This document shows positions 1 through 16,166 of a stretch of DNA of 16,166 bases, one piece after another. The notes under the pieces were generated by a model. The model was not told the DNA's origin, searched no databases, and worked only from the letters and a program-made list of their open reading frames with translations. Source of the DNA: Candidatus Poribacteria bacterium (GTDB lineage Bacteria; Poribacteria; WGA-4E; WGA-3G); assembly GCA_028818995.1 (NCBI GenBank), contig JAPPMR010000399.1, positions 1 to 16,166 of the forward strand. The letters run 5' to 3'. Each line of letters begins with the position of its first letter. The first letter of the stretch is position 1. Position numbers and translations under genes: made by a program.

Positions 1-1
1 T

Positions 2-1003
2 TATAGTACAGGTGGTGGTGTTTGCCCGAAAATTGAACTCTACGGTGGGACGCGAGATGTCCTGAAAGATACAGAGTACACAGCGTGCATTACACGGGAA
101 AAAGCGGAACACATACTTATACAGAAATTCTACAAATCACAGAGAATTAAATGGTTACCATTTGATGAAGCATTGGAAATAGCACAAGCAGAGCAGAAAC
201 CGATTCATGCTATTTCAATTGCTGGTCCTCTTGACGATGAAGCGTGCTGAGGAAGCGGAAAAAACATGAGGGCAGTTGTCCTCTCCGATGAACGAATTAT
301 CAATTTACTAAATGATAATTATATTAACACATGGATACGTAGTGTTGAGTTGAAACGCTTGTGTGATACATTGGAATATAAGCAAATGTCACCTTTAGCG
401 CGTAGTATCATCTGCAATAAATGGCGTAGAGGTCCAGTAGATACATGGATAATTACTCATCAACTTGAAACTATTGGACATGTAGATATCAATGAGTATC
501 TTGGAAACAACAGACGTAAAGACGGCACTCTTGAAAGTGAGAATTACTTGTTGTTTCTCAAGGATTCTTTAGCAGGAAAACTTCCTGGATTAGGAAATAT
601 TGTTCTTACTCCCGATCAACCTTCACAAACAGTATTAGATGTTTTTCGCACGCCAGAATATGGACATCAGGATTACACCGTTGTCGTGATTGATACGACT
701 GCGTTTGAAAACGGTGGAACACTCACGATTGATCTGGAATTGGGAATCGATAAAGCGTATGGTTCATTCTTTCTGCTTGATGCAGAACATAAACTCTCCT
801 TTGATGCTGGTAAAAAACGACCAGGAATAAATATGTTCAATGATGCACACGATATTGGTTGGTATGATCCTTACGAAATTGGGCAGATGACACATCGTTT
901 TGAACAGGGACAAATCTATAAACTGGTTGGCATGGGATGGGGATCTAACGAAAAGGGAAGCATCAACGCTTTTCAAGCGACGCTCTCTATAGAGGAAAAT
1001 TGA
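2..1003 (+). CDS. Selenoprotein with thioredoxin-like Cys-Sec domain, copy 1 (5'-truncated; UGA 248-250 read as Sec)
   Basis: The 5' end lies outside the window; reading opens at base 2 and runs to TGA 1001-1003, giving 333 residues if TGA 248-250 is selenocysteine (residue 83 of the fragment). A standard gene caller would instead give a C-terminal scrap ending at 250 and an ORF from ATG 266. The TGA lies between Cys 82 and Gly-Ser-Gly-Lys, and the five codons before ATG 266 are in frame and conserved in the other two copies, so ATG 266 is an internal Met. The segment before the UGA (IKWLPFDEALEIA then QKPIHAIS) matches the start of thioredoxin_7/DUF255-like folds; the segment after it supplies the first helix, a Gly-Pro-Val-Asp loop like the cis-Pro loop, and a beta-rich C-terminal domain. 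Reaction unknown; a cytoplasmic thiol/selenol redox role is inferred. The stop is one base before the next copy's ATG. Confidence 0.85.
248..283 (+). promoter_or_regulatory. UGA (Sec) codon and bacterial SECIS-like hairpin, copy 1
   Basis: TGA at 248-250 follows a Cys codon. Bases 268-273 (GAGGGC) pair with 278-283 (GTCCTC), with one G-U wobble, closing the loop AGTT at 274-277. The loop starts 23 bases after the TGA and has G as its second base. This fits the described bacterial SECIS pattern: a short hairpin inside the coding region, loop about 16-37 bases after UGA, with a G among the first two loop bases, as in E. coli fdhF. The stem also codes for the Arg-Ala-Val-Val-Leu stretch. Confidence 0.75.
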
Positions 1004-1004
1004 A

Positions 1005-2600
1005 ATGAACACGTTATCAAACAAAATCACACTTAACCTTGACAGGAACACAGAAGTCAACGTCAAAGGGTTCATCGCGCCGATTGAATACACACAATAT
1101 AATTTTCACGTGGAGTGGGACGAATTAGCGAACTTTCGGGTAGCTGAACCGGAGAAGCAGTACCCATCATCGGTTTTTCAAGCATTTCTGCCATCGGAAT
1201 CGGTTTCAGTGGGTGAATGTTGGCAGATTCAAGAAGAAGCTGCATTAACACTCCTACAACAACTCTATCCCAATCCAAAACTGAGACTGCAGAATGATGA
1301 CGAGGAATACACTGGAATATGGGCATGTCTACGTTCTTACAATGATACACTCGCTGAAATCGCGTTCCGCGTTCACGCAGAATTTATCATGGAGAAGGGC
1401 AAGTTCACGCCATCACAGTTTGCGGGGCATTTAGTGATAGACCGAATTCAGCAGAAAATTGTGTCTTTCAAAATGTTCGTTCCGTCAACAACACTGAACT
1501 TTGATGCCGGTTGGAAACAAGAAGATGGGAACTATTTTGCGGAGATCGGTTATTGCCCACAACTTCAGCTCTGTACTGGCATATATCCGACTGATGTGGA
1601 ATACAAAACATCAATCACACAGAAAGAAGCAGAACGCATGCTAATATCACATTATTACATGTTCCACAAAATCAACTGGATATCGCTTGCAGAAGCGTTT
1701 GAACTGGCTCCTGTTCAACAGAAACCGATCCATGCTGTCTCATTAGATGGGCCGCTTTTTGATGAGTCGTGCTGAGGCACCGGCAGAATCCTGAGAACAG
1801 GTGTTCTCTCTAAAAACGCAATTATTGAATTTCTGAACGAAAATTTCATCAACACCTGGGTGGAAAACGCAGAATTGGGACGGACAGGCAGCTTGCAAGA
1901 CCCTATTGCAAAAAGACGTAAGCGGGAAGGAAAAACTTTCAATACAAACCACGCCTTAGCCAGAACTATAATGAAAGGATGGGTAAAAGGTTCACCAGTA
2001 GACTGTTTCGTTATCTCACACGATTTTGATTTGATAGGAAGTGTTGACTTCAATGAATTCCTTGACAACCTGCAACGCCCTGAAGATGAACCTGTGACAT
2101 ACATGCAATTTCTCAAGGATTCCTTAGAAGGAAAACGTCCTGGCTTGGGAGACATCATCCTTACACCTGAACAACCTTCACAGGAAGTTCTTGACACTAT
2201 TCACACTCCGAAAATGGCACATCAGGACTACACAGTTGTCGGTATCAACACCACAGCATTTCAAGATGGTGGCACACTTACTATTGATATCAAAGTCGGT
2301 AGAGATGATGCAATCGGATTATTTTTTCTACTGGATGGAAATAAAAAATTGCCAACTGAGAAAGTGCCAGAAGGAATTGATCCCACAGAATGGCACAGTC
2401 AAGAAAGTAATGAATATGAGAAGGCACTTGATGCACTTGCTAAGCTCTGGGGTGTATTCCCTGGTCAAGCTGGGCGAATTACCTATCAGTTTAATCGTGG
2501 TCAACGTTTCAAATTGTGTGCAACTGGAGACCAATGGGGCGGTGTTGGCGGCATAAACGCATTCCATGTAAAAATATCTGTAGAGGAGAATAATAATTGA
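1005..2600 (+). CDS. Selenoprotein with thioredoxin-like Cys-Sec domain, copy 2 (UGA 1773-1775 read as Sec)
   Basis: The ATG at 1005 is one base after the previous stop, with an AGAGGAA Shine-Dalgarno inside the previous gene, so translation is probably coupled. Read through TGA 1773-1775 it is 531 residues with Sec at 257 after Cys 256. Regions by eye: an unrecognised N-terminal domain (about 1-215, containing GECWQI, GIWACLRSYND and FTPSQFAG blocks shared with copy 3); a thioredoxin-like domain (about 220-375) with strand KPIHAVS, motif C-U-G-T-G-R, helix LSKNAIIEFLNENF, and Ser-Pro-Val-Asp with Pro 331 as candidate cis-Pro; and a beta-rich C-terminal domain (about 405-531). No signal peptide, so cytoplasmic. 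Without recoding, the second half would have to begin at CTG 1791 or GTG 1860, neither with a ribosome-binding site. Function unknown; selenol-based peroxide or disulfide chemistry is inferred from the motif. Confidence 0.85.
1773..1808 (+). promoter_or_regulatory. UGA (Sec) codon and bacterial SECIS-like hairpin, copy 2
   Basis: TGA at 1773-1775. Bases 1793-1798 (GAGAAC) pair perfectly with 1803-1808 (GTTCTC) around the loop AGGT at 1799-1802, which begins 23 bases after the TGA, exactly as in copies 1 and 3. The fourth stem pair is A-T here but G-C in the other copies. Both bases are third codon positions (Arg AGA/AGG and Val GTT/GTC), so this is a synonymous compensatory pair change supporting an RNA structure. 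Confidence 0.8.
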
Positions 2601-4192
2601 AAACCCCACCAAACAAAATTATACTCAATCTTAAGAACGATGAAAAAGTATCCGTTAAAGGTTTCGTCGCACCAATTGAGTATACACTCTCCCATTTTCA
2701 TATAGAGTGGGATGCGTTAGCAAATCTGCATGTTACTGATCCGGAAAAGGAACATCCTACATCAGTTTTTCAGTCTTTTCTTCCAACAAAGGCGGTTTCA
2801 ATAGGTGAATGTTGGCAGATTGAAGAAGCAGGTATAATGGAGCTGCTTCGGCAACTGAATCCTGAGCCGAATCTGGATCTGGAAATGGACAATGGAGATT
2901 CCCACGGTTTATGGGCATGTCTGCGTGCTTACAACGATAGGTTTGCTGATATCCAGTTTCGCATTCATGCAGATTTCAAGTTAGAAGACGGCTGGTTTAC
3001 ACCTTCCCAATTTGCAGGAAATCTCATTATCAACCGAATTGAGCAGACGATTGCATTTTTCAAAATGTCCGTGCCCGAAGGCACGGTAAACTTTGACGTG
3101 AATTGGCACGAGGACAAAAACGTTGACTATACTATTACGGATGCCGGTTTCTGCTCCCAAATGGAACTTAAGGCAGGCATAGAAGATGTGGTACAAAATA
3201 CCGATTTCACAGAATCAATAACCGAAGAAGAGACAGAACGCGTGCTGAGTTTGCGCTTTTACAAGTCAGCACAAATCAACTGGGTATCGCCATATCAAGC
3301 AGTGGAGATGGCAGAAGAACAGGTTAAGTTAATTCATGTTATTTCAATAGACGGGCCATTGGCTAATGAGGCTTGCTGAGGGAGCGGCAAAGACTTGAGG
3401 GCAGGTGTCCTCTCTGATAACCAAATTATTGAATTCTTGAATGAAAATTTTATCAACATCTGGGTTTCCAATGTCCAATTAGAACGCACTCCCAGAAAAC
3501 AAGCATATATGGCGCAAAGACGAAAGGAAATATCCAATGCGTTTGACAGAACGCATCCCTTAGCAAAAGCCATTATGGAAGGGTGGCAAGAGCATTCACC
3601 GGTGGATTGTTTGGTGATTTCACCGGAATTTGATGTAATGGGGAAACTTCCGTTTAATGATTTCTTTGGTGACTGCACACGAAGGGGTATCACGGAAGAG
3701 GAAGGTTACCTTGCATTTCTGAGCGATTCCTTAGATGCAAAGTTCCCTGGATTTGGTGAAGATACATCAGATCCTCTTTTGACTGGTTCAAACATTGTCC
3801 TCAATGAAAAACATCCTGAGCAAGAGGTATTGCACATTCTTCGCGCGCCAAGGCACGGCGACCAAGACTACAATGTCATTACAATAGATGTCACAGCATT
3901 TAAAAATGGTGGGGTGCTTATCATTGATATTCGGATGGGAAGTGCCAAATCTGGCGGATCGTTTGATCTGTTTGATGACGATACCGAATTGCCTACAAAA
4001 GGAATTCCTACCGAAGCACGGACCTCAGTATGGGATATCCCATCCGGACAGATAGGAACAATACGACATCTCTTTGACGAAGGTAAAGTCTTTAAGTTAG
4101 GTGCAACGGGAACTTGGTTCAGTGGAAAAGGAAACGTCAATGCTTTTCATGCAAAGATTTCTGTAGAGCCAGCAGAAAAGAATGAAAAGTGA
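2597..4192 (+). CDS. Selenoprotein with thioredoxin-like Cys-Sec domain, copy 3 (UGA 3377-3379 read as Sec)
   Basis: The start is TTG 2597, overlapping the previous stop as TTGA, with a clear GAGGAG Shine-Dalgarno at 2583-2588; start choice is supported by alignment with copy 2. Read through TGA 3377-3379 it is 531 residues, the same length as copy 2, with Sec at 261 after Cys 260. Domain order is as in copy 2: N-terminal unknown domain, thioredoxin-like domain with strand KLIHVIS, motif C-U-G-S-G-K, helix LSDNQIIEFLNENF and SPVDCLVIS loop, then a beta-rich C-terminal domain. About half the residues match copy 2 by eye. Aligned with ordinary W-C-x-x-C-K active sites, Sec falls on the attacking Cys, the resolving Cys is Gly, and the Trp position is Cys. 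The gene ends 14 bases before the secreted WD40 gene, suggesting one transcript. Confidence 0.85.
3377..3412 (+). promoter_or_regulatory. UGA (Sec) codon and bacterial SECIS-like hairpin, copy 3
   Basis: TGA at 3377-3379. Bases 3397-3402 (GAGGGC) pair with 3407-3412 (GTCCTC), including one G-U wobble, around the loop AGGT at 3403-3406. Loop position, stem length and loop sequence match copy 2 although the stem bases differ. Confidence 0.8.
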
Positions 4193-4206
4193 CATAGATA
4201 GTTACG

Positions 4207-6147
4207 ATGAAAACAACACTTTTTTCTTTTTTGACGCTATTGATAATTCTAAGTCTCATCCCATCAATCGGTTCTGCTGAGTATGAACCGAGCACTCAAA
4301 TTGCACTCCCTGAAGGTGCACTTGCCCGACTTGGAAAAGGTCGTGCAGAGGCGGTAGCGTTCTCTCCAGATGGAAACATGCTCGCGGTTGCAGGTTCAAT
4401 CGGTATTTGGCTTTATGATGTCCGCACCTACGAAGAGGTTTCACTGCTTACCGGGCACACGGCAAATGTTCAATGTGTAGCATTCAGTCCAGATGGTAGG
4501 ACGCTTGCCAGTGGTAGTTGGGATGATACGGTGCATTTGTGGGATGTTTCCACGAGAAAACGAGTTGCTATTCTCAAGCATACAGGAAGTGTGTTAAGTA
4601 TAGCGTTTAGTCCTAATGGAAAACTACTTGCAACTGGATGTGGGTATACTATGACCCCTGAAAGGTCTACTCCTCGGGACGATCAGGACACAGTGAGACT
4701 ATGGAACGTTCGCACAAAAAAGCATATCACCACATTTAATGGACACACTGCTTATGTTAACAGCGTAGCATTCAGTCCTGATGGGAAAACACTCGCAACT
4801 GGCAGTCGTGATAAGACAGTGCGGTTATGGAGTGTTACTAAGAAAAAGAATATCGGTATCCTCAAAGGACACACGGGTAATGTTTGTAGTGTAGCGTTTA
4901 GTCCAGATGGCAAAATTATCGCAAGTGGCGGCGGCTATGAAGGCGATAATTCAATTAGATTATGGGATGCTGACCCAAAAAAACACAAGAAAACTCTCAT
5001 AGGACATACAGACTCTGTTAATAGTATCGCTTTTAACTCCGATGGCAAACTACTCGCAAGTGGGAGTAGTGACAAAACAGTAAAGGTATGGGATACCAAG
5101 ACAGGTAAACATAACATAACACTAACTGGACACACAGATGATATTAAATGTGTAGCGTTCAGTCCTGATAACAATACACTTACAAGCGCGAGTAAAGATG
5201 GAACAATTCGGTTATGGGATGCAACAACAATCACAGGATATACCGATTATGTCGTGAGTGTTTCGTTCAGTTCAGATAGCAACATACTTGCGAGTGCAAG
5301 TTGGGACAATAAGATTCATCTGTGGGATGTAAACACAGGAAAACATAAGAAAGAACTCATAGGGCATACGGATAGAGTCTTAAAAGTTGTATTCAGTCCT
5401 AATCTCAATACTCTCGCAAGCGGTAGTGCTGATAAAACGGTGAGACTATGGGATATTGCCACCGGAAAGACAATCAAAACGTTTAAAGAACAGACATCTG
5501 CTATAGCATTTAGTCCGGATGGCAACACACTCGTAAGTGGTAGTCAAAATAATACGTTACAACTATGGGACATCACTACAGGAGAACGCAAAAATACACT
5601 CACAGGGCATACGGACGTTGTCATTAGTATGGCGTTTAGTCCAAAAGGCACTCTAATTGCAACCAGTAGCAATGACAACACAGTCTGTCTATGGGACGCT
5701 ACAACTGGCAAGTTGAAAAATAAATTAGTTGGCAACACTATATCTGTTGGAAAGGTGGCATTTAGTCCAGATGGTAATACCCTCGCAAGTAGTAACTACG
5801 ACGAGATTTACTTATGGGATATTACCACAGGAAAACACATAAATACATTCAAACACAAAAAACTATACGAACGAATAACAACATCTAAACAGAAAACAAT
5901 AGTTGAATCAAGTACAGATTACGCTTGGAATGTTATCTTCAGCCCCGATGGAAATACACTCGCGACTTGTAGTCTGTTCGGTAAGGTTCACTTGTGGGAT
6001 ATTGCCACAGGAACGTATAAGAAAGTTCTTACAGGACATATAGGAAACGTAAAGTCTGTTGCGTTTAGTCCGAACGGTAAACTGCTTGCAAGCTGTAGTA
6101 TGGATGGCACAATTCTTCTATTCGGACCAGTTTGGAAAGAACGATAG
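4207..6147 (+). CDS. Secreted WD40-repeat protein, 14 blades
   Basis: A 646-residue protein. Residues 1 to about 24 form a signal peptide (Lys-Thr start, Leu/Ile-rich core, Gly-Ser-Ala cleavage site), so it is exported. The rest is about 14 WD40 repeats, each with AFSPDG, LASGS, a DKTVRLWD-type strand and a GHT turn, from about residue 47 to the end; this would make two seven-bladed propellers. Repeat 7 is shortened between its WD dipeptide and GYT, and repeats 3, 5 and 12 carry insertions. WD40 propellers are protein-interaction scaffolds; no catalytic domain is visible. The ATG at 4207 has no strong Shine-Dalgarno, but gives a complete signal peptide and lies 14 bases after the selenoprotein array, so it may depend on upstream translation. 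Why cytoplasmic redox proteins would share a transcript with an exported propeller is not evident. Confidence 0.9.
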   Translation: MKTTLFSFLTLLIILSLIPSIGSAEYEPSTQIALPEGALARLGKGRAEAVAFSPDGNMLAVAGSIGIWLYDVRTYEEVSLLTGHTANVQCVAFSPDGRTLASGSWDDTVHLWDVSTRKRVAILKHTGSVLSIAFSPNGKLLATGCGYTMTPERSTPRDDQDTVRLWNVRTKKHITTFNGHTAYVNSVAFSPDGKTLATGSRDKTVRLWSVTKKKNIGILKGHTGNVCSVAFSPDGKIIASGGGYEGDNSIRLWDADPKKHKKTLIGHTDSVNSIAFNSDGKLLASGSSDKTVKVWDTKTGKHNITLTGHTDDIKCVAFSPDNNTLTSASKDGTIRLWDATTITGYTDYVVSVSFSSDSNILASASWDNKIHLWDVNTGKHKKELIGHTDRVLKVVFSPNLNTLASGSADKTVRLWDIATGKTIKTFKEQTSAIAFSPDGNTLVSGSQNNTLQLWDITTGERKNTLTGHTDVVISMAFSPKGTLIATSSNDNTVCLWDATTGKLKNKLVGNTISVGKVAFSPDGNTLASSNYDEIYLWDITTGKHINTFKHKKLYERITTSKQKTIVESSTDYAWNVIFSPDGNTLATCSLFGKVHLWDIATGTYKKVLTGHIGNVKSVAFSPNGKLLASCSMDGTILLFGPVWKER

Positions 6148-6163
6148 AGCTGCTTTTTCTTGT

Positions 6164-6180
6164 AGGTTTTAGTCAAACCT
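6164..6180 (+). terminator. Weak hairpin after the WD40 gene, possible terminator
   Basis: AGGTTT at 6164-6169 pairs with AAACCT at 6175-6180 around a 5-base loop, 17 bases after the WD40 stop. There is no downstream T-run, so an intrinsic terminator is doubtful. Confidence 0.2.
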
Positions 6181-6281
6181 GCTATCATTCAAATTACACA
6201 AACAAAATACAACATATTGGGCTGGTAGTTTTCACAACTATTGCCGCTTCATAATTCAACATATCACTGAGAGGAACAAAA

Positions 6282-7010
6282 ATGCAAAGCCACGAGGTAG
6301 ATTACGAAATATTCGGCAACGATATGCAAGTCGTTGAAGTTGAACTCGACATGGGCGAGACAATTATCGCGGAAGCCGGCGCTATGAACTGGATGGAAGA
6401 CGATATCGTCTTTGAGGCAAAGATGGGGGATGGTTCCGGTGGTGATGAGGGTTTAATGGGCAAACTCTTTAGTGCTGGCAAGCGTGCACTCACTGGTGAA
6501 TCACTGTTTTTGACTCACTTTACCAATACGGGTAGTAATAAAAGACGGGTGGCTTTCGCTGCTCCTTATCCCGGTCATATTATCCCCATTGATCTTTCTC
6601 AAATGGGTGGAGAACTGCTCTGCCAAAAGGATGCCTTTCTATGTGCCGCCTTAGGTACCGAACTCAACATTGCCTTCTCACGCAGATTGGGCGCAGGTTT
6701 TTTCGGTGGTGAGGGTTTTATCCTCCAGCGATTACTCGGAGACGGCATGGCTTTTGTGCATGCTGGTGGGTCAGTCATCAAAAAGGAACTTGTTAATGAT
6801 ACGTTCCGTATTGATACAGGTTGCCTTGTTGCCTTCACGTCTGGTGTTGATTATAACATTGAAATGGTCAAAGGTTTAAAGTCAATGTTCTTCGGTGGTG
6901 AAGGACTTTTCTTGGCGACCTTGCAAGGCACAGGTACTGTTTACCTCCAAAGTTTACCTTTTTCAAAACTTGCCGACCGTATCATAGCACAAGTGCCAAG
7001 CAGTAACTGA
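6282..7010 (+). CDS. AIM24 / TIGR00266-family protein
   Basis: A 242-residue protein matching the AIM24 (formerly DUF124, TIGR00266) family in length and layout. Recognisable stretches are [24 protein letters not shown] near residues 26-50, the glycine-rich [38 protein letters not shown] near 147-159, and [24 protein letters not shown] near the C-terminus. The family forms a beta-rich repeat fold; mitochondrial homologues affect cristae organisation, while the bacterial role is undefined. No signal peptide. ATG 6282 has a good GAGAGG Shine-Dalgarno at 6269-6274. It stands 134 bases after the WD40 gene and probably has its own promoter, although I could not identify a convincing one. Confidence 0.9.
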
Positions 7011-10309: not shown

Positions 10310-11170
10310 CTATTGCGTTAAGAGATAGTTGATTATCTGTGCAGCAACTTCGGCTTTCGGATTATTTTTATACAGGGTATGAAAAACAATCGCTAATCTA
10401 CCACGATCACCATCTCGCACAATGATGGGATCTGCCAAGGTTGCCTGCTGGGTATTCCCAGTATTACTCGCAAGTATCTTTTCAGCAAACCACTTATCCT
10501 CAAGTTGATCTAAAGGAAAAGGTCTGTCAGAATTAAAATGTACCAAACTTGGAGCTAATCTACTACCTTCTGCTGTAACATACATAGGTACGTTGTGTTC
10601 ATATACATCAATCTCAATTTCAGGGAGGTCCATTAAGTTTTGCATAGCACCACGTTCGTTGGCTGTGCCTTCTGAACTGTTATACCCAAAATAATCCGCG
10701 TGATTCAATATTGTATCACCATCCGTTGATTCAATCCAATTTTCGGCGACAGAACCATCGGGTTGCGCATTTCCCGAGGGATAAATCGTGGAAGGTAAAA
10801 TACCGTAAAGGATGCAAACATTGACGACACCGTTTGCGGTTGTTTGCAGCATCCAATCTCTGACGGATTCCTTACTTTTTGTTATCTCCACTTGCATACT
10901 CTCTGATTCTAAGAGAAATTTTGTCATTTCTGCTTCATTTTCTGCATTTTCCGGACTTATCCATAAGGTTTTACCTATATAAATCAAAACATCTACTGAA
11001 CCGTCTATAGGATCAACTGGTATAATATCTGTTGTTTCCTGTTTCACTATTTCTGCAGGTTCTACATCCGGTACAACCGATACCTTTAATTGCTGCGTCT
11101 TACTACAACTGGCAAAGGAAACTATACAACCAATTAAAACGATAATTACTGACCATTGATATTTTACCAC
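10310..11170 (-). CDS. Predicted lipoprotein, paralogue 1 (family not recognised)
   Basis: A 286-residue protein with a short positive N-terminus, a hydrophobic stretch and a lipobox-like Phe-Ala-Ser-Cys ending at Cys 22, so probably a membrane-anchored lipoprotein. The mature part opens with a strand VDVLIYIG, then has VNVCILYGILPSTIY, ENWIESTDGDTILN, APSLVHFNSDRPFPLDQL and TLADPIIVRDGDRGRLAIVFHT. The alternating strand/helix pattern and GxLP loop recall class I glutamine-amidotransferase-like (ThuA-like) folds, but no clear nucleophile triad is visible; that is only a suggestion. The GTG start at 11170 has a strong AAGGAG 8 bases upstream. It is paralogous to the lipoprotein at 12269-13081, with the same leader. 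Confidence 0.85.
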   Translation of the reverse strand: MVKYQWSVIIVLIGCIVSFASCSKTQQLKVSVVPDVEPAEIVKQETTDIIPVDPIDGSVDVLIYIGKTLWISPENAENEAEMTKFLLESESMQVEITKSKESVRDWMLQTTANGVVNVCILYGILPSTIYPSGNAQPDGSVAENWIESTDGDTILNHADYFGYNSSEGTANERGAMQNLMDLPEIEIDVYEHNVPMYVTAEGSRLAPSLVHFNSDRPFPLDQLEDKWFAEKILASNTGNTQQATLADPIIVRDGDRGRLAIVFHTLYKNNPKAEVAAQIINYLLTQ

Positions 11171-12268: not shown

Positions 12269-13081
12269 CTATTTAGCTAATAGGTAGTTGATGATTATCT
12301 CCGCCGCGACTGCCCCTTTCGGATTATCCCCATGATGTGTTTGGTGAACCATCGCGAGTCTACCTCGATTGCCATCTCGAAGAATTATAGGATCTGCCAA
12401 TGTCGCCTGAATATCTCCTGTATCACTTGCAAATATCTTTTCAGCGGACCATTCAGCTCCGAGTTGTTCCAAAGGGAAGGGTCTGTCCGATTCAAAATTG
12501 GCTAAACTTGGGGTTAATGTTCTGCCACCCTCAGTGACCTGCATAAGTAGGTTCTCAAAATGTTCAACATTAATATCAATATTAGGAAGGTCCATAAGGT
12601 TTTGCAGAGGTGCCTTGTAGTTAGGTGTCTCGTCTGAACTGTAATAACCTAAATAATCTGCCTGATTCAAAATCGTATCACCATCTGTTGTTTCAATCCA
12701 GTTTTCAGCGATTGATCCGTCGGGTTCGGTATTTCCTGGGGCATAGATTGTTGCGGGTAAAACGCCATAAAGGATGCAGACATTCACCGCACCGTTTCCT
12801 GTTGTCTTCACCATCCAGTTCTTAAGTGTTTCATCACTTTCTGTAATTGCTATTCGAATTCCCTTGGATTCTAAATGTCCCTTTGCCGTTTTCGCCTCAA
12901 GTCTTGCAATTTCCAATGTTATCCATGAAGCACTACCTGTATAAATCAATACATCCACCGGTTTTACATTCAATACACCAGAGACAACTGGTATAGACTT
13001 TTTTTGCACTTTCGTGCAACTCGCAAAGGAAACCGCCCAGCCAATTAGGAGGATAATAACAATCCATCGGTATTTTCGCAC
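12269..13081 (-). CDS. Predicted lipoprotein, paralogue 2 (family not recognised)
   Basis: A 270-residue paralogue of the product at 10310-11170. The lipobox Phe-Ala-Ser-Cys again ends at Cys 22. It shares NVCILYGVLPATIY, ENWIETTDGDTILNQADYLGYYSS, LQNLMDLP, SDRPFPLEQL and TLADPIILRDGNRGRLAMV with paralogue 1, but has a shorter linker after the lipid anchor, which accounts for most of the length difference. GTG 13081 is preceded by AAGGAG at the same 8-base spacing as in paralogue 1, and the bases from AAGGAG to GTG are identical. Function is unknown; the divergence suggests an old duplication with both copies kept intact. Confidence 0.85.
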   Translation of the reverse strand: MRKYRWIVIILLIGWAVSFASCTKVQKKSIPVVSGVLNVKPVDVLIYTGSASWITLEIARLEAKTAKGHLESKGIRIAITESDETLKNWMVKTTGNGAVNVCILYGVLPATIYAPGNTEPDGSIAENWIETTDGDTILNQADYLGYYSSDETPNYKAPLQNLMDLPNIDINVEHFENLLMQVTEGGRTLTPSLANFESDRPFPLEQLGAEWSAEKIFASDTGDIQATLADPIILRDGNRGRLAMVHQTHHGDNPKGAVAAEIIINYLLAK

Positions 13082-13401: not shown

Positions 13402-14754
13402 TTATTTGGGAATAACCTGTTTGATTTGTCCGTTCTGTCCACCGATAACGATGCTACCGTCCGTGGGGTGAACGCTCAGGGAATAAGCCCAACCCTCAAG
13501 TGCAGATATCTCAGTTGTAACCTCTACTGAATCCGGATCAATGATATAGATTCTGCCATTGTTGCAGGCTGCAGCAATCTTTGAACCATCGTTTAACCAT
13601 GCGACACTCAGCAGGGGCGTTTTAAGTCTTGCGAACTTAACCATACGTCCGATAGTTGGCTGCCAAAACCTTACGGTACGATCATCACCTGCGGACGCGA
13701 TCATTGGAAGTCCTCCATCAACCGGGCGCAGTGCAAGGTCATGCACGGGCAGCGTATGATTGTTCATACTTCGGATCAACTCACCAGATGTCAAATCCCA
13801 AACGCGGACACTCTGATCTATTCCCGTACTCACAAGTTTTTCTTTATCATTCAGGAAACAGAGAGATGACACCCCTTTTGAATGTCCTTTCAGGTCTTGA
13901 ATCTGAGTTCCAGTGTGCAGGTCCCAAAGAATAATGCGTCGGTCTAAACTTGCTGATGCAAGCGATGACGTATCCCGCCACGCCACTGCCGTGACTGAAT
14001 CGCGATGCTTCTTAAGAACATGGAGTGATTTTACTTCAGGCCATGAAAAAATCTCTATGATGCCTTCGGTTGCAGGATTTCCGCCGCCAACAGCTAACTG
14101 ATTTCCATCAGGTGAAAACGCAAGATCGTGAATGTTATTGGCTTGCACTTTAATGATCTTCTGTAGGTTGAGTGCTGGCCAATCGTAAACGTGCAACCCC
14201 GCTTGCGAACATGCCACAACAGATTTTCCATCAGGAGAAAATGCAAGAGAGGTAATCGGTGGCATGATGGGAGGTTGGTGAGGATTGTTACCGGCACTTG
14301 ATGGTTTGTGCTGCGATTGATTTCCATTCCATTTACCGTAGTTTGCCCCATCTTCAATCCACTTTCGGTAAAGGTCGGTTTGCTGCTCTGTTAAGGGGGC
14401 GCCTTCCTCTGACGGTGGCATAATGCCAGTTTCTCCTTCGGGTAACGTGATACGTTGGTAGAGAAGGGAATCCTCAGGTTCACCAGCGATAATCACTTCT
14501 CCGTGTCTACTCTCCTCAATACCTTTTACACTATCCAGTTGGACATCAGCTTTCGGCTTCGTGACGTTCCCATCGGCATCAATCTTTGGGGCACTGTGGC
14601 AACTAAAGCAGCGATTCTGGAGGATAGGCAAAATCTGCTTTTCAAAATCAATTTCAGCTTTATAATCTGCTGAGATAGCAGGTGGAGCAAATATCAAGAT
14701 AAATATGAAACTAAAAATAGGTATTACTAAATTTGGGGGCAGTTCCCGCTTCAT
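13402..14754 (-). CDS. Planctomycete-type cytochrome c (PSCyt1) domain fused to a seven-bladed WD40 propeller, exported
   Basis: A 450-residue exported protein. Residues 1 to about 29 are a signal peptide (basic start, Ile/Phe-rich core, AISA cleavage site). Residues about 35-140 are a PSCyt1-type (PF07635) cytochrome c-like domain with heme motif C49-F-S-C52-H53, GEPEDSLLYQRI, and GIMPP with Met 112 as candidate distal ligand. Residues about 165-450 contain seven WD40-type blades, enough for one propeller. The family is common in Planctomycetes and allied phyla near DUF1549/DUF1553 proteins, as here; roles in extracytoplasmic electron transfer or polymer breakdown have been suggested but not proven. 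I chose ATG 14754 over the adjacent TTG 14757: GGAG lies 8 bases before the ATG. It lies 228 bases downstream of the DUF1549/DUF1553 gene on the same strand, with a long inverted repeat between. Confidence 0.9.
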   Translation of the reverse strand: MKRELPPNLVIPIFSFIFILIFAPPAISADYKAEIDFEKQILPILQNRCFSCHSAPKIDADGNVTKPKADVQLDSVKGIEESRHGEVIIAGEPEDSLLYQRITLPEGETGIMPPSEEGAPLTEQQTDLYRKWIEDGANYGKWNGNQSQHKPSSAGNNPHQPPIMPPITSLAFSPDGKSVVACSQAGLHVYDWPALNLQKIIKVQANNIHDLAFSPDGNQLAVGGGNPATEGIIEIFSWPEVKSLHVLKKHRDSVTAVAWRDTSSLASASLDRRIILWDLHTGTQIQDLKGHSKGVSSLCFLNDKEKLVSTGIDQSVRVWDLTSGELIRSMNNHTLPVHDLALRPVDGGLPMIASAGDDRTVRFWQPTIGRMVKFARLKTPLLSVAWLNDGSKIAAACNNGRIYIIDPDSVEVTTEISALEGWAYSLSVHPTDGSIVIGGQNGQIKQVIPK

Positions 14755-14872
14755 CAATTTATCTCCATTATTTAAATTCAGTAAATATAAGAGGGAAAAT
14801 TCGTTTTACTACAGACGGTTCTAAATTTTAAGAAATTTATACCATTTCTATATGAAAATATTGTATTATTTC

Positions 14873-14982: not shown

Positions 14983-16166
14983 CTAATTATTGTTCACAAA
15001 CTCATTACAAGTTAGCAAACTCCAGACCATATCTTCAAGGACTGCTTGTTGGGAATTGGCAGATGCCTCAATATCAATGTGCTGTTTCCAGAACTGCTGC
15101 TCTTTATCTGTTGGTTGCCGACATAACGCTGCGAGATAAAATTCGTTCACAATCTCCATCGGTGATTTCCCATCCGACATCAGCTTATCAAGTCGACTAT
15201 TCGGAACACCGATGCGGGCGTTGAGAAGGTCGCCATTGAACAGATGCAGTTTACGTTGAAGTTCATCCGTTGCTTCAGCAGAACTCTCGCATGAAGTTTC
15301 ACGCGAACATCTCCCAAGAATATCCAGTGCATCGGATTCGGTATTCGGATTAAACAGAGACACAGCGCGTGTCCCTTCTGGTTCATCACCATAAATATCG
15401 GACACACCGAGCACATCTGAAATGGCATCAGCCAACACCTCTGGCGCAAGCGGTTTTTGTAGTGCATGAGAATAGAAGCGATCATCCGCTCTGTTTTGCG
15501 GGAGTGCATTTGAACTACGCGCGTAAGCCTCACTGAGCGCGATCCGTCTAAGTGTATGCCGTAGGTCGTAGCCGTGTTCTACAAAATCAGTTGCCAATGT
15601 TGTCAGTAACTCAGGATGCGTGGCAGGATTGGTGGAGCGAAAATCGTCAACAGGTTCAACCAATCCGCGTCCCATCATCGCCTTCCATAACCGATTGACA
15701 ATCGCTTTGGCGAAATATGAGTTATCAGAACTTGTTAGCCAATCTACCAATTCGAGACGACCATCAGGGACATCAATAGGCAAAAACTGACTACCGGGGA
15801 TCCGCGGTACCGCTTTTTCACGTGTTGCAGGATGGATAACTTCACCAGACGTTTTTACTTTGACGACCTGTTCAGTTTCCATCTTGGCAAAAATCGCCGC
15901 TAATCCGTGATAGTCGTCTTGTGTCCACTTGTCAAGCGGATGGTTATGGCAGTTTGCACATCGCAGTCGCGCTCCCATAAAGAGTTCACTCACAAATTCA
16001 GCTTGTTCACGAGGTCCATCAACGGTGCGGTAAAAATTCGCCGGACCAACTTCATGGGAATCACCTGTTGCCAAAATAACCGAACGTGCCATCTGGTCAT
16101 ACCCAACACCTTCGCGAATCTGTTCCGATAGCCATTTGTGGTAGACAAACGCGCCTTGTGTGTTTC
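14983..16166 (-). CDS. DUF1549/DUF1553 (PSCyt2/PSD1) protein, C-terminal part, 5'-truncated
   Basis: The reading frame is open from the window edge (16166) down to the TAA at 14985-14983, giving 394 complete residues; the N-terminus lies outside. The visible start (YHKWLSEQIREGVGYDQMARSVILATGD) is the end of a DUF1549 (PF07583) domain, followed by LRCANCHNHPLDKWTQDDYHGLAAIF with a heme-like C-x-x-C-H motif. The DUF1553 (PF07587) domain follows: RLELVDWLTSSDNSYFAKAIVNRLWKAMMGRGLVEPVDDFR, HPELLTTLATDFVEHGYDLRHTLRRIALSEAYARSS, ending with VLEDMVWSLLTCNEFVNNN. Such proteins are usually exported and found in Planctomycetes, Verrucomicrobia and allied phyla beside PSCyt1 proteins and DUF1501 sulfatase-like partners. 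Biochemical function is unproven. The Met at 16092 is internal, since homologous sequence continues upstream. Confidence 0.92.
   Translation of the reverse strand, partial: NTQGAFVYHKWLSEQIREGVGYDQMARSVILATGDSHEVGPANFYRTVDGPREQAEFVSELFMGARLRCANCHNHPLDKWTQDDYHGLAAIFAKMETEQVVKVKTSGEVIHPATREKAVPRIPGSQFLPIDVPDGRLELVDWLTSSDNSYFAKAIVNRLWKAMMGRGLVEPVDDFRSTNPATHPELLTTLATDFVEHGYDLRHTLRRIALSEAYARSSNALPQNRADDRFYSHALQKPLAPEVLADAISDVLGVSDIYGDEPEGTRAVSLFNPNTESDALDILGRCSRETSCESSAEATDELQRKLHLFNGDLLNARIGVPNSRLDKLMSDGKSPMEIVNEFYLAALCRQPTDKEQQFWKQHIDIEASANSQQAVLEDMVWSLLTCNEFVNNN

What the first reader, a model, noticed from the sequence alone, without database searches (positions are those of the whole stretch)
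2..4192. Tandem array of at least three selenoproteins hidden as six split ORFs
Three A-type ORFs each end in a Cys codon followed by TGA, and each is followed by a B-type ORF in the same frame with no intervening stop. The five codons between TGA and the apparent start are conserved as protein (Gly-Ser/Thr-Gly-Lys/Arg-x). The apparent starts are ATG, CTG and TTG without ribosome-binding sites, as expected if they are internal Met or Leu codons. Read through, copies 2 and 3 are both exactly 531 residues. Elsewhere in the window TGA is a normal stop.
Basis: partly seen in the sequence, partly recalled or inferred. Interest (0 to 1): 0.95.

Follow-up and report, generated by a model that had tools for sequence, protein, structure and literature searches.

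The report
Hidden tandem selenoproteins in sponge symbionts
A row of genes, likely from Candidatus Poribacteria (bacteria known as sponge symbionts), that the standard genetic code cuts in two at a UGA "stop" codon is predicted to make whole thioredoxin-like proteins carrying the rare amino acid selenocysteine at that codon, and members of this likely unrecognised selenoprotein family were found in 64 of the 84 genomes searched from that phylum.

Summary
By similarity the window is Candidatus Poribacteria. Three tandem copies (the first cut by the window edge) each carry one in-frame TGA inside a predicted thioredoxin fold. In 210 distinct homologous contexts the codon is TGA in 205, Gly in 4, Ser in 1, never TAA or TAG. 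A bacterial-SECIS-type hairpin follows the TGA in 204 of 205, and synonymous codons are most constrained just there. The nearest held genome has tRNA-Sec, SelA, SelB and SelD, and its SelD has an in-frame TGA too. Database relatives with one continuous frame have Gly (13), Cys (5), Trp (2) or Thr (1) at the site. The family is in 64 of 84 genomes of the phylum, up to 13 site-pattern matches each, with runs of 5 and 8 genes. No Pfam or NCBIfam model reaches its cut-off and Table 1 of the 2026 catalogue lists no such family. The usual resolving Cys of CxxC is Gly; an adjacent Cys precedes Sec. Selenium incorporation and function are untested.

The parts
2..1003 (+). Copy 1 of the array, 5' end cut off by the window edge; read-through product 333 aa from the edge; predicted Sec at TGA 248-250
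   Evidence: aligned with copies 2 and 3
248..250 (+). In-frame TGA of copy 1 (motif DEAC-U-GSGK)
268..283 (+). bSECIS-type hairpin of copy 1: 6-bp stem GAGGGC/GTCCTC, loop AGTT starting 23 nt after the TGA
86..583 (+). Thioredoxin-fold domain of copy 1 spanning the TGA (by alignment with copy 2)
992..996 (+). GAGGA ribosome-binding-site-like stretch before the ATG of copy 2, inside the 3' end of copy 1
1005..2600 (+). Copy 2, complete: 531 aa with predicted Sec at residue 257
   Evidence: 97% identical relative with one TGA in G001
1611..2138 (+). Thioredoxin-fold domain of copy 2 (residues 203-378), DsbH/Thioredoxin_7-like, with Cys256-Sec257
   Evidence: AlphaFold models; fold searches; profile comparison
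1773..1775 (+). In-frame TGA of copy 2 (motif DESC-U-GTGR)
1793..1808 (+). bSECIS-type hairpin of copy 2: GAGAAC/GTTCTC, loop AGGT starting 23 nt after the TGA
2127..2588 (+). C-terminal beta-sandwich domain of copy 2 (about residues 375-528), jelly-roll / pre-peptidase-C-like fold
2583..2588 (+). GAGGAG ribosome-binding-site-like stretch before the TTG of copy 3
2597..4192 (+). Copy 3, complete: 531 aa from TTG (start overlaps the TGA stop of copy 2), predicted Sec at residue 261
3215..3745 (+). Thioredoxin-fold domain of copy 3 (by alignment with copy 2)
3377..3379 (+). In-frame TGA of copy 3 (motif NEAC-U-GSGK)
3397..3412 (+). bSECIS-type hairpin of copy 3: GAGGGC/GTCCTC, loop AGGT starting 23 nt after the TGA

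Best explanation
The window holds part of a tandem run of paralogous genes, likely from Candidatus Poribacteria, each with one in-frame UGA that is predicted to be read as selenocysteine, which would join the two apparent ORFs into one protein of about 530 residues. Shown by the calls: the frame is under purifying selection on both sides of the UGA; a conserved hairpin of the bacterial SECIS type begins 17 bases after it; and the Sec machinery is in the nearest held genome and in most of the phylum. Predicted by models: the UGA lies inside one thioredoxin fold. Inferred: SelB, carrying Sec-tRNA, binds the hairpin loop (A-G-G/U-U) and delivers Sec at the UGA, so translation continues to the real stop and restarts on the next gene from a ribosome-binding site in the 3' end of the previous one. 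Inferred and untested: Sec sits where thioredoxins have their attacking cysteine, the usual resolving cysteine is a glycine, and the neighbouring conserved cysteine is the likely partner, so the protein is most likely a thiol/selenol oxidoreductase (disulfide or peroxide reduction) working through a Cys-Sec selenenylsulfide. The N-terminal and C-terminal beta domains probably place it on different partners, which would explain the many copies.
Against: No protein or selenium data exist here. The window's own assembly is not held, so the machinery is shown in a relative and not in this very genome. Five of 64 carriers lack SelB above cut-off (G004, G011, G051, G061, G062); these assemblies are 73-83% complete. 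Cys homologues are few (5), and Gly is the commoner replacement, unusual for a redox-active Sec. All five non-TGA contexts still form the 6-bp stem, though two have lost the loop G, so the hairpin alone does not mark Sec. The stem is intact in its standard register in only 172 of 205; most others fit with a shifted or larger loop. Covariation is limited: several pairs never vary, and pair 24-31 pairs in 83 of 91 against a shuffle maximum of 84. SD-like bases lie upstream of the first possible start after the TGA in 93 of 205 sites. In 5 of 14 control genomes the tRNA-Sec model also passes its cut-off. Synonymous constraint is also high at a few codons far from the hairpin (-30: 1.31, +117: 1.50 bits). 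The role of Sec257 and its pairing with Cys256 rest on a model and an alignment only, and two database homologues lack that Cys (P0053, P0125).
Confidence: 0.92

Rival explanations
1. Each pair is two separate proteins: translation ends at the TGA and restarts at the ATG/CTG/TTG six codons later (termination-reinitiation), and the halves assemble.
For: TGA is a normal stop elsewhere in the window. A YTG/ATG codon sits six codons downstream in most sites (positions 18-20), and SD-like bases precede the first possible start in 93 of 205 sites. Databases hold the halves as separate proteins.
Against: The first ATG/GTG/TTG is 10 or more codons away in 89 of 205 sites, and in 31 of 91 representatives the sixth codon is CTG. 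The TGA cuts one predicted thioredoxin fold between strand 1 and helix 1. Continuous-frame homologues exist. TAA/TAG never replace TGA in 210 contexts. Residues between TGA and the apparent start are conserved as protein.
Confidence: 0.04
2. The UGA is read through, but by a standard amino acid (for example Trp by tRNA-Trp, or an altered code), not by Sec.
For: Two homologues have Trp at the site (P0054, P0125). Read-through as such fits all the frame data.
Against: Thirteen homologues have Gly and five have Cys there. UGA also ends genes in the window. The conserved feature is a hairpin that fits the published bSECIS spacing and loop rule, in a phylum where SelB is above cut-off in 75 of 84 genomes, and SelD has an in-frame UGA in all 35 above-cut-off hits among 39 relatives.
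Confidence: 0.03
3. The genes are pseudogenes or carry assembly errors.
For: Some other copies carry further in-frame stops (for example G017:C123:11404-12996 with a TAA and G026:C4:93428-94627 with a TAG); these were not examined one by one.
Against: The same TGA is kept in 205 of 210 distinct contexts from many assemblies, and dN/dS of copy 2 is 0.10-0.16 on both sides.
Confidence: 0.01

Closest known systems
Thioredoxin_7 / Trx7-type selenoproteins (for example Trx7/PDZ, NF041199, in the 2026 catalogue; UGAC-type copy L180 in G021)
   Same: Thioredoxin fold; Sec aligned with the N-terminal residue of CxxC; same phylum
   Different: Here the motif is C-U-x-x-G: no resolving Cys at the fourth position, a conserved Cys directly before Sec, an insert before the motif, extra N- and C-terminal beta domains, and no Pfam or NCBIfam match above cut-off
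DsbH oxidoreductase (2ju5) and the AGR2/AGR3 and DsbD-gamma group of thioredoxin folds
   Different: 14-16% identity; those are thiol proteins without Sec (motifs recalled); the parts outside the domain differ
Known bacterial multi-selenoprotein operons (SAO, Tso, frhA-frhD-hdrA; PMC13188914, section 9)
   Same: Several selenoprotein genes in one operon
   Different: Those join different families as described there; here 5 to 8 paralogues of one family stand in a row
Vicinal Cys-Sec (GCUG) tail of mammalian thioredoxin reductase (recalled)
   Same: Adjacent Cys and Sec flanked by a small residue and Gly
   Different: There it is a mobile C-terminal tail of a flavoprotein; here it lies inside a thioredoxin fold; no homology is claimed
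Selenoprotein-rich bacteria (Olavius algarvensis Delta 1 endosymbiont, at least 57 genes; a Methylomirabilota MAG, 63 genes; PMC13188914, section 10)
   Same: Large selenoprotein gene sets; the first is also an animal symbiont
   Different: Here one lineage-specific family is expanded (up to 13 site-pattern matches per genome); total selenoproteome size was not counted here

Membership tests
Bacterial selenoprotein (any family) | In-frame UGA inside a conserved coding frame | tested here: met
   205 of 210 distinct contexts TGA; both halves under purifying selection
Bacterial selenoprotein (any family) | bSECIS hairpin: loop 3-9 nt, stem 4-16 bp, G in the first two loop positions, 16-37 nt from the UGA, MFE at most -7.5 kcal/mol (model as quoted in PMC13188914) | tested here: met
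   Geometry met in 204 of 205 with at least 5 bp. Energy of a 30-nt piece holding the hairpin: -8.9 in copies 1 and 3, -7.1 in copy 2, so copy 2 just misses the limit in that piece; the 54-nt folds of the three are -10.7 to -13.1, but there the minimum-energy fold of copies 2 and 3 is not this hairpin
Bacterial selenoprotein (any family) | Sec machinery in the genome (tRNA-Sec, SelA, SelB, SelD) | tested here: met
   All four above cut-off in G001, the nearest held genome; own assembly not held
Bacterial selenoprotein (any family) | Homologues with Cys in place of Sec | tested here: met
   P0256, P0292, P0302, P0308, P0344; few, and their DNA was not seen
Bacterial selenoprotein (any family) | Selenium shown in the protein | not testable with these tools
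   needs mass spectrometry or 75Se labelling
Thioredoxin_7 / Thioredox_DsbH families | Thioredoxin fold | tested here: met
   predicted models and fold searches; hhalign probability 95.5%
Thioredoxin_7 / Thioredox_DsbH families | CxxC (or UxxC) active site | tested here: not met
   motif is C-U-x-x-G; Gly260 aligns with the second Cys
Thioredoxin_7 / Thioredox_DsbH families | Profile score above the curated Pfam cut-off | tested here: not met
   no match for copies 2 and 3; PF03190 15.2 bits against cut-off 27 for copy 1; 1 of 48 alignment members hits PF03190, E 0.021
The 119 catalogued prokaryotic selenoprotein families (PMC13188914, Table 1) | Match to an NCBIfam/Pfam model of the catalogue, or same motif and architecture | tested here: not met
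   NCBIfam scan of three copies: 0 families; Table 1 read and no entry has this motif and architecture; entries without a model were judged by name and motif only

The most novel reading that the evidence does not exclude
Poribacteria have evolved a lineage-specific, multi-copy selenoprotein toolkit in which the thioredoxin active site was rebuilt: Sec is the attacking residue, its resolving partner has moved from the fourth position to the residue directly before it, and the family is nearly Sec-obligate, decaying to Gly (or Trp, Thr, Ser) more often than to Cys. Because its pieces stop at Cys and Cys homologues are rare, discovery methods built on Cys homology overlook it, so selenium use by sponge symbionts is larger than annotated.
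Probability: 0.6. Interest if true: 0.82.

Novelty: new variant of a known kind. Interest (0 to 1): 0.74.

Why it matters
It would add a selenoprotein family, spread over 64 of 84 searched genomes of one phylum, that is not in Table 1 of the 2026 catalogue. It explains many broken hypothetical proteins in public databases: of 228 relatives listed end exactly at the Cys before the UGA. It shows a thioredoxin active site rearranged around a vicinal Cys-Sec pair, with natural Gly, Cys, Trp, Thr and Ser variants that make the role of Sec testable. It also shows tandem expansion of one selenoprotein family in bacteria of marine sponges (habitat from PMC5649159 passages and recall), whereas the richest selenoproteomes are described as mainly anaerobic (PMC13188914, section 10).

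Tried and rejected
Rfam at gathering thresholds: no match in the window, so no catalogued RNA family covers the hairpin. PDB sequence search: one match at E 0.42, none. tRNA scan of the window: none. Promoter/terminator scan of 1-6400: no excess over shuffles. A first impression that Cys homologues do not exist was wrong: one search found five. In one search, 33 of 205 TGA contexts break the standard 6-bp stem; all but one of 205 have a qualifying hairpin, 8 with the loop at 24 nt, 15 with a 6-nt loop, 15 with a loop at 18 nt. Multi-Sec polyproteins: one database protein (P0068) is a B-half fused to a following A-half, but all 241 read-through chains in my loci had exactly one UGA, so this was not pursued. 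In one search the row 'copy 3 vs L041:6588' was in the wrong frame and was dropped; the remaining copy 3 row (L047) gives dN/dS 0.15 and 0.19. In one search, two of the 194 unique TGA contexts (L040 position 80, L016 position 40) were mis-registered at locus ends; one search leaves out sites within 120 nt of a locus start or 183 nt of its end. Fold matches of the C-terminal domain include bacterial toxin and virus capsid domains; these share a common beta-sandwich and are read as nothing more. Only three Foldseek matches of the Sec domain reach E 0.001.

Papers: PMC13188914 (abstract, outline, sections 5, 9, 10, section 7 parts 1-2 of 3, passages); PMC12013277, PMC5649159, PMC9999580, PMC12879404, PMC1794560 (passages only); others only in search listings. 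Claims that this is not in print rest on the searches in an open-access library only.
Full report
WHAT IS THERE. The window opens inside a tandem array. Three copies of one gene follow each other on the + strand, with almost no space between them: copy 1 (2-1003, 5' end missing), copy 2 (1005-2600) and copy 3 (2597-4192, its TTG start overlapping the TGA stop of copy 2). Each is split in the standard code by one in-frame TGA (248-250, 1773-1775, 3377-3379), directly after a Cys codon and directly before Gly-Ser/Thr-Gly-Lys/Arg. Read through, copies 2 and 3 are both 531 residues and 50% identical. TGA ends all three copies and 2 of 10 other window genes checked, so it is not reassigned wholesale.

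WHERE IT COMES FROM. All 70 loci returned from the GTDB species collection (the best 80 of 127 matches) are titled Candidatus or uncultured Poribacteria; the best covers copy 2 at 98% identity. The window's own assembly is not held; the nearest genome, G001, shares 53% of the window's 31-letter words. It holds copy 2 at 97% and, after copy 3, the start of the same following gene.

THE CODON. A profile built with TGA read as Cys found 210 distinct homologous contexts in the fetched loci: 205 TGA, 2 GGA, 2 GGC, 1 TCA, and no TAA, TAG, TGC or TGT. Many contexts are related; clustering at 85% nucleotide identity leaves 91 of the 205. A stop that ended translation would be free to drift among TGA, TAA and TAG; none of the 210 does. 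Purifying selection is similar on both sides: for copy 2 against five relatives (98% and 84-76% protein identity) dN/dS is 0.10-0.16 in each half; for copy 3 against one relative 0.15 and 0.19.

THE RNA ELEMENT. Seventeen bases after the TGA begins a 6-bp hairpin, in the window GAGGGC or GAGAAC, a loop AGTT or AGGT, then GTCCTC or GTTCTC, with the loop starting 23 nt after the TGA. This fits the published bacterial SECIS geometry (PMC13188914 section 5). A qualifying hairpin of at least 5 bp is present in 204 of 205 TGA contexts, with the loop at 23-24 nt in 199 of 205; the same scan at eight other offsets gives 8 to 54 of 205, and mononucleotide shuffles 1184 of 4100. In the standard register the 6-bp stem is intact in 172 of 205, and the second loop base is G in 201 of 205. 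On energy the picture is less clean: a 30-nt piece with the hairpin folds at -8.9, -7.1 and -8.9 kcal/mol in copies 1, 2 and 3, and the minimum-energy fold of the 54-nt stretch of copies 2 and 3 is another one. The strongest independent sign is in the synonymous codons: 11 of the 12 codons from +3 to +36 show 0.9-3.3 bits of constraint, against mostly 0.1-0.6 elsewhere (exceptions include -30 at 1.31, -3 at 1.04, +117 at 1.50). Arg at +21 is AGG or AGA in 91 of 91 although 75% of nearby Arg codons are CGN; Leu at +33 is CTC in 84 of 91 although CTC is 10% nearby. The one pair that links two third codon positions (23-32) is GC in 64, AT in 12 and GT in 3 of 91; 79 pair, against a maximum of 75 in 500 shuffles. 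Pair 24-31 does not stand out (83 against a maximum of 84) and several pairs never vary. All five non-TGA contexts also keep the stem; remnant SECIS-like structures in Cys homologues are described in PMC1794560 (passage). A 47-base pattern of the site, with up to 3 mismatches, matches 339 times in 64 of 84 genomes of the phylum, its reversed control 0 times; at least one match is the TCA copy, so the matches are not all TGA.

THE MACHINERY. Among G001 and its relatives (39 genomes), tRNA-Sec is above the Rfam cut-off in 35 (34 of them at 70 bits or more, G039 at 48), SelB in 35, SelA in 33, SelD in 35; of 14 control genomes 5, 2, 1 and 2 pass. G001 has all four. ARAGORN calls tRNA-SeC (tca) in all eight tRNA loci fetched. 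All 35 SelD hits above cut-off contain one in-frame TGA; in G001 the motif is VKCAG-U-ASK and a GCTC-CGGGT-GAGC hairpin follows. SelD is in the catalogue as an experimentally verified selenoprotein family, so UGA is very likely read as Sec in these genomes. In the phylum, 75 of 84 genomes have SelB above cut-off and 64 carry the family. Five carriers lack SelB (G004, G011, G051, G061, G062), all 73-83% complete; of 20 non-carriers, 16 have SelB.

THE HOMOLOGUES. In the protein database the family is mostly broken. Of 228 relatives listed (lists capped at 120 each), 114 end exactly in [x][EDQ]xC, and most of the 99 in the last class begin at scattered Met positions of the second half. Of 347 database proteins from all three searches, 21 are continuous across the site: 13 Gly, 5 Cys, 2 Trp, 1 Thr. 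Gly, Trp and Cys can each arise from TGA by one base. TGA relatives of one Cys protein (P0344) are 80-83% identical in four genomes. A set of close relatives (L111-L123) has TGA in some genomes and GGA/GGC in others; two of the Gly copies have lost the loop G (AACT), two keep it. Caveats: these sequences are related and not independent events, and I did not see the DNA of the five Cys proteins.

HOW IT LIKELY WORKS. Shown: frame, codon, hairpin, machinery in relatives. Predicted: fold. Inferred: SelB-dependent Sec insertion at each UGA; translation of the next gene from a GAGGA-type site in the 3' end of the previous one (window junctions). Inferred and less certain: a redox reaction at Sec257 with Cys256 as partner, since the usual resolving Cys is Gly. 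I put about 0.92 on Sec and about 0.5-0.6 on the Cys-Sec redox pair.

RIVALS. Separate halves by reinitiation is disfavoured: the first possible start is 10 or more codons away in 89 of 205 sites and the predicted fold is cut. Read-through by Trp is disfavoured by the Gly/Cys spectrum and the SECIS-type hairpin. Pseudogenes are very unlikely given the conservation.

NOVELTY. Table 1 of the 2026 catalogue (119 families; PMC13188914) has no such motif and architecture, and 'Poribacteria' with 'selenoprotein' gives no paper in the open library; with 'selenocysteine' two, of which one reports SelA/SelB in sponge symbiont bins and the other holds the word only in a cited title. Other searches. Current SECIS-independent methods lean on Cys homologues (PMC12013277 passages), which may be why it was missed. 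I rate it a new variant of a known kind: a selenoprotein family with a rearranged thioredoxin active site and unusual tandem expansion (five genes in a row in G001, eight in G021).

Noticed in passing
L145 position 1068 (G001:C112:62937-63863); 35 of 39 relatives: SelD itself carries an in-frame TGA (motif VKCAG-U-ASK), so it is predicted to be a selenoprotein in this lineage; served as an internal control.
   Followed up: yes
L180 (G021:C11:137890-138138); G001:C123:167179-167436; G001:C107:41176-41433; G082:C1:727162-727413: Thioredoxin_7 proteins with in-frame TGA; L180 reads TDW-U-GAC, a canonical UxxC site. G082:C1:727162 has two TGAs. Further selenoproteins are likely in these genomes.
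   Followed up: partly
P0068 (database protein, 541 aa): A B-half continues in frame into another A-half ending ...FDDESC, which suggests a fused protein with two UGA sites; none of 241 chains in my loci shows this.
   Followed up: partly
L113, L114, L115, L120 and P0053, P0125: Relatives with Gly (the L loci, P0053) or Trp (P0125) at the Sec site; in P0053 and P0125 the preceding Cys is lost as well, suggesting copies that may have given up redox chemistry.
   Followed up: partly
window 4207-6147: A 646-aa WD40-repeat protein with a signal-like N-terminus; its ATG lies 14 bases after the stop of copy 3, and the same start follows the array in G001.
   Followed up: partly
window 10310-11170 (-) and 12269-13081 (-): Two 56% identical lipoprotein-like paralogues without any Pfam match at E 0.001, separated by a HAD-type hydrolase on the other strand.
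   Followed up: partly
window 13402-14757 (-) and 14983-16164 (-): A WD40 protein with an N-terminal CFSCH stretch next to a DUF1549/DUF1553 (PSCyt2/PSD1) protein, a pairing I recall from Planctomycetes.
   Followed up: no
L143 3491-5497; L144 9955-11961 and 15062-17086; L146 10199-12277: Some array members have a longer second half (404-419 aa after the UGA against mostly 250-290); proteins of this type such as P0005 and P0007 seem to hold the C-terminal beta domain twice.
   Followed up: no
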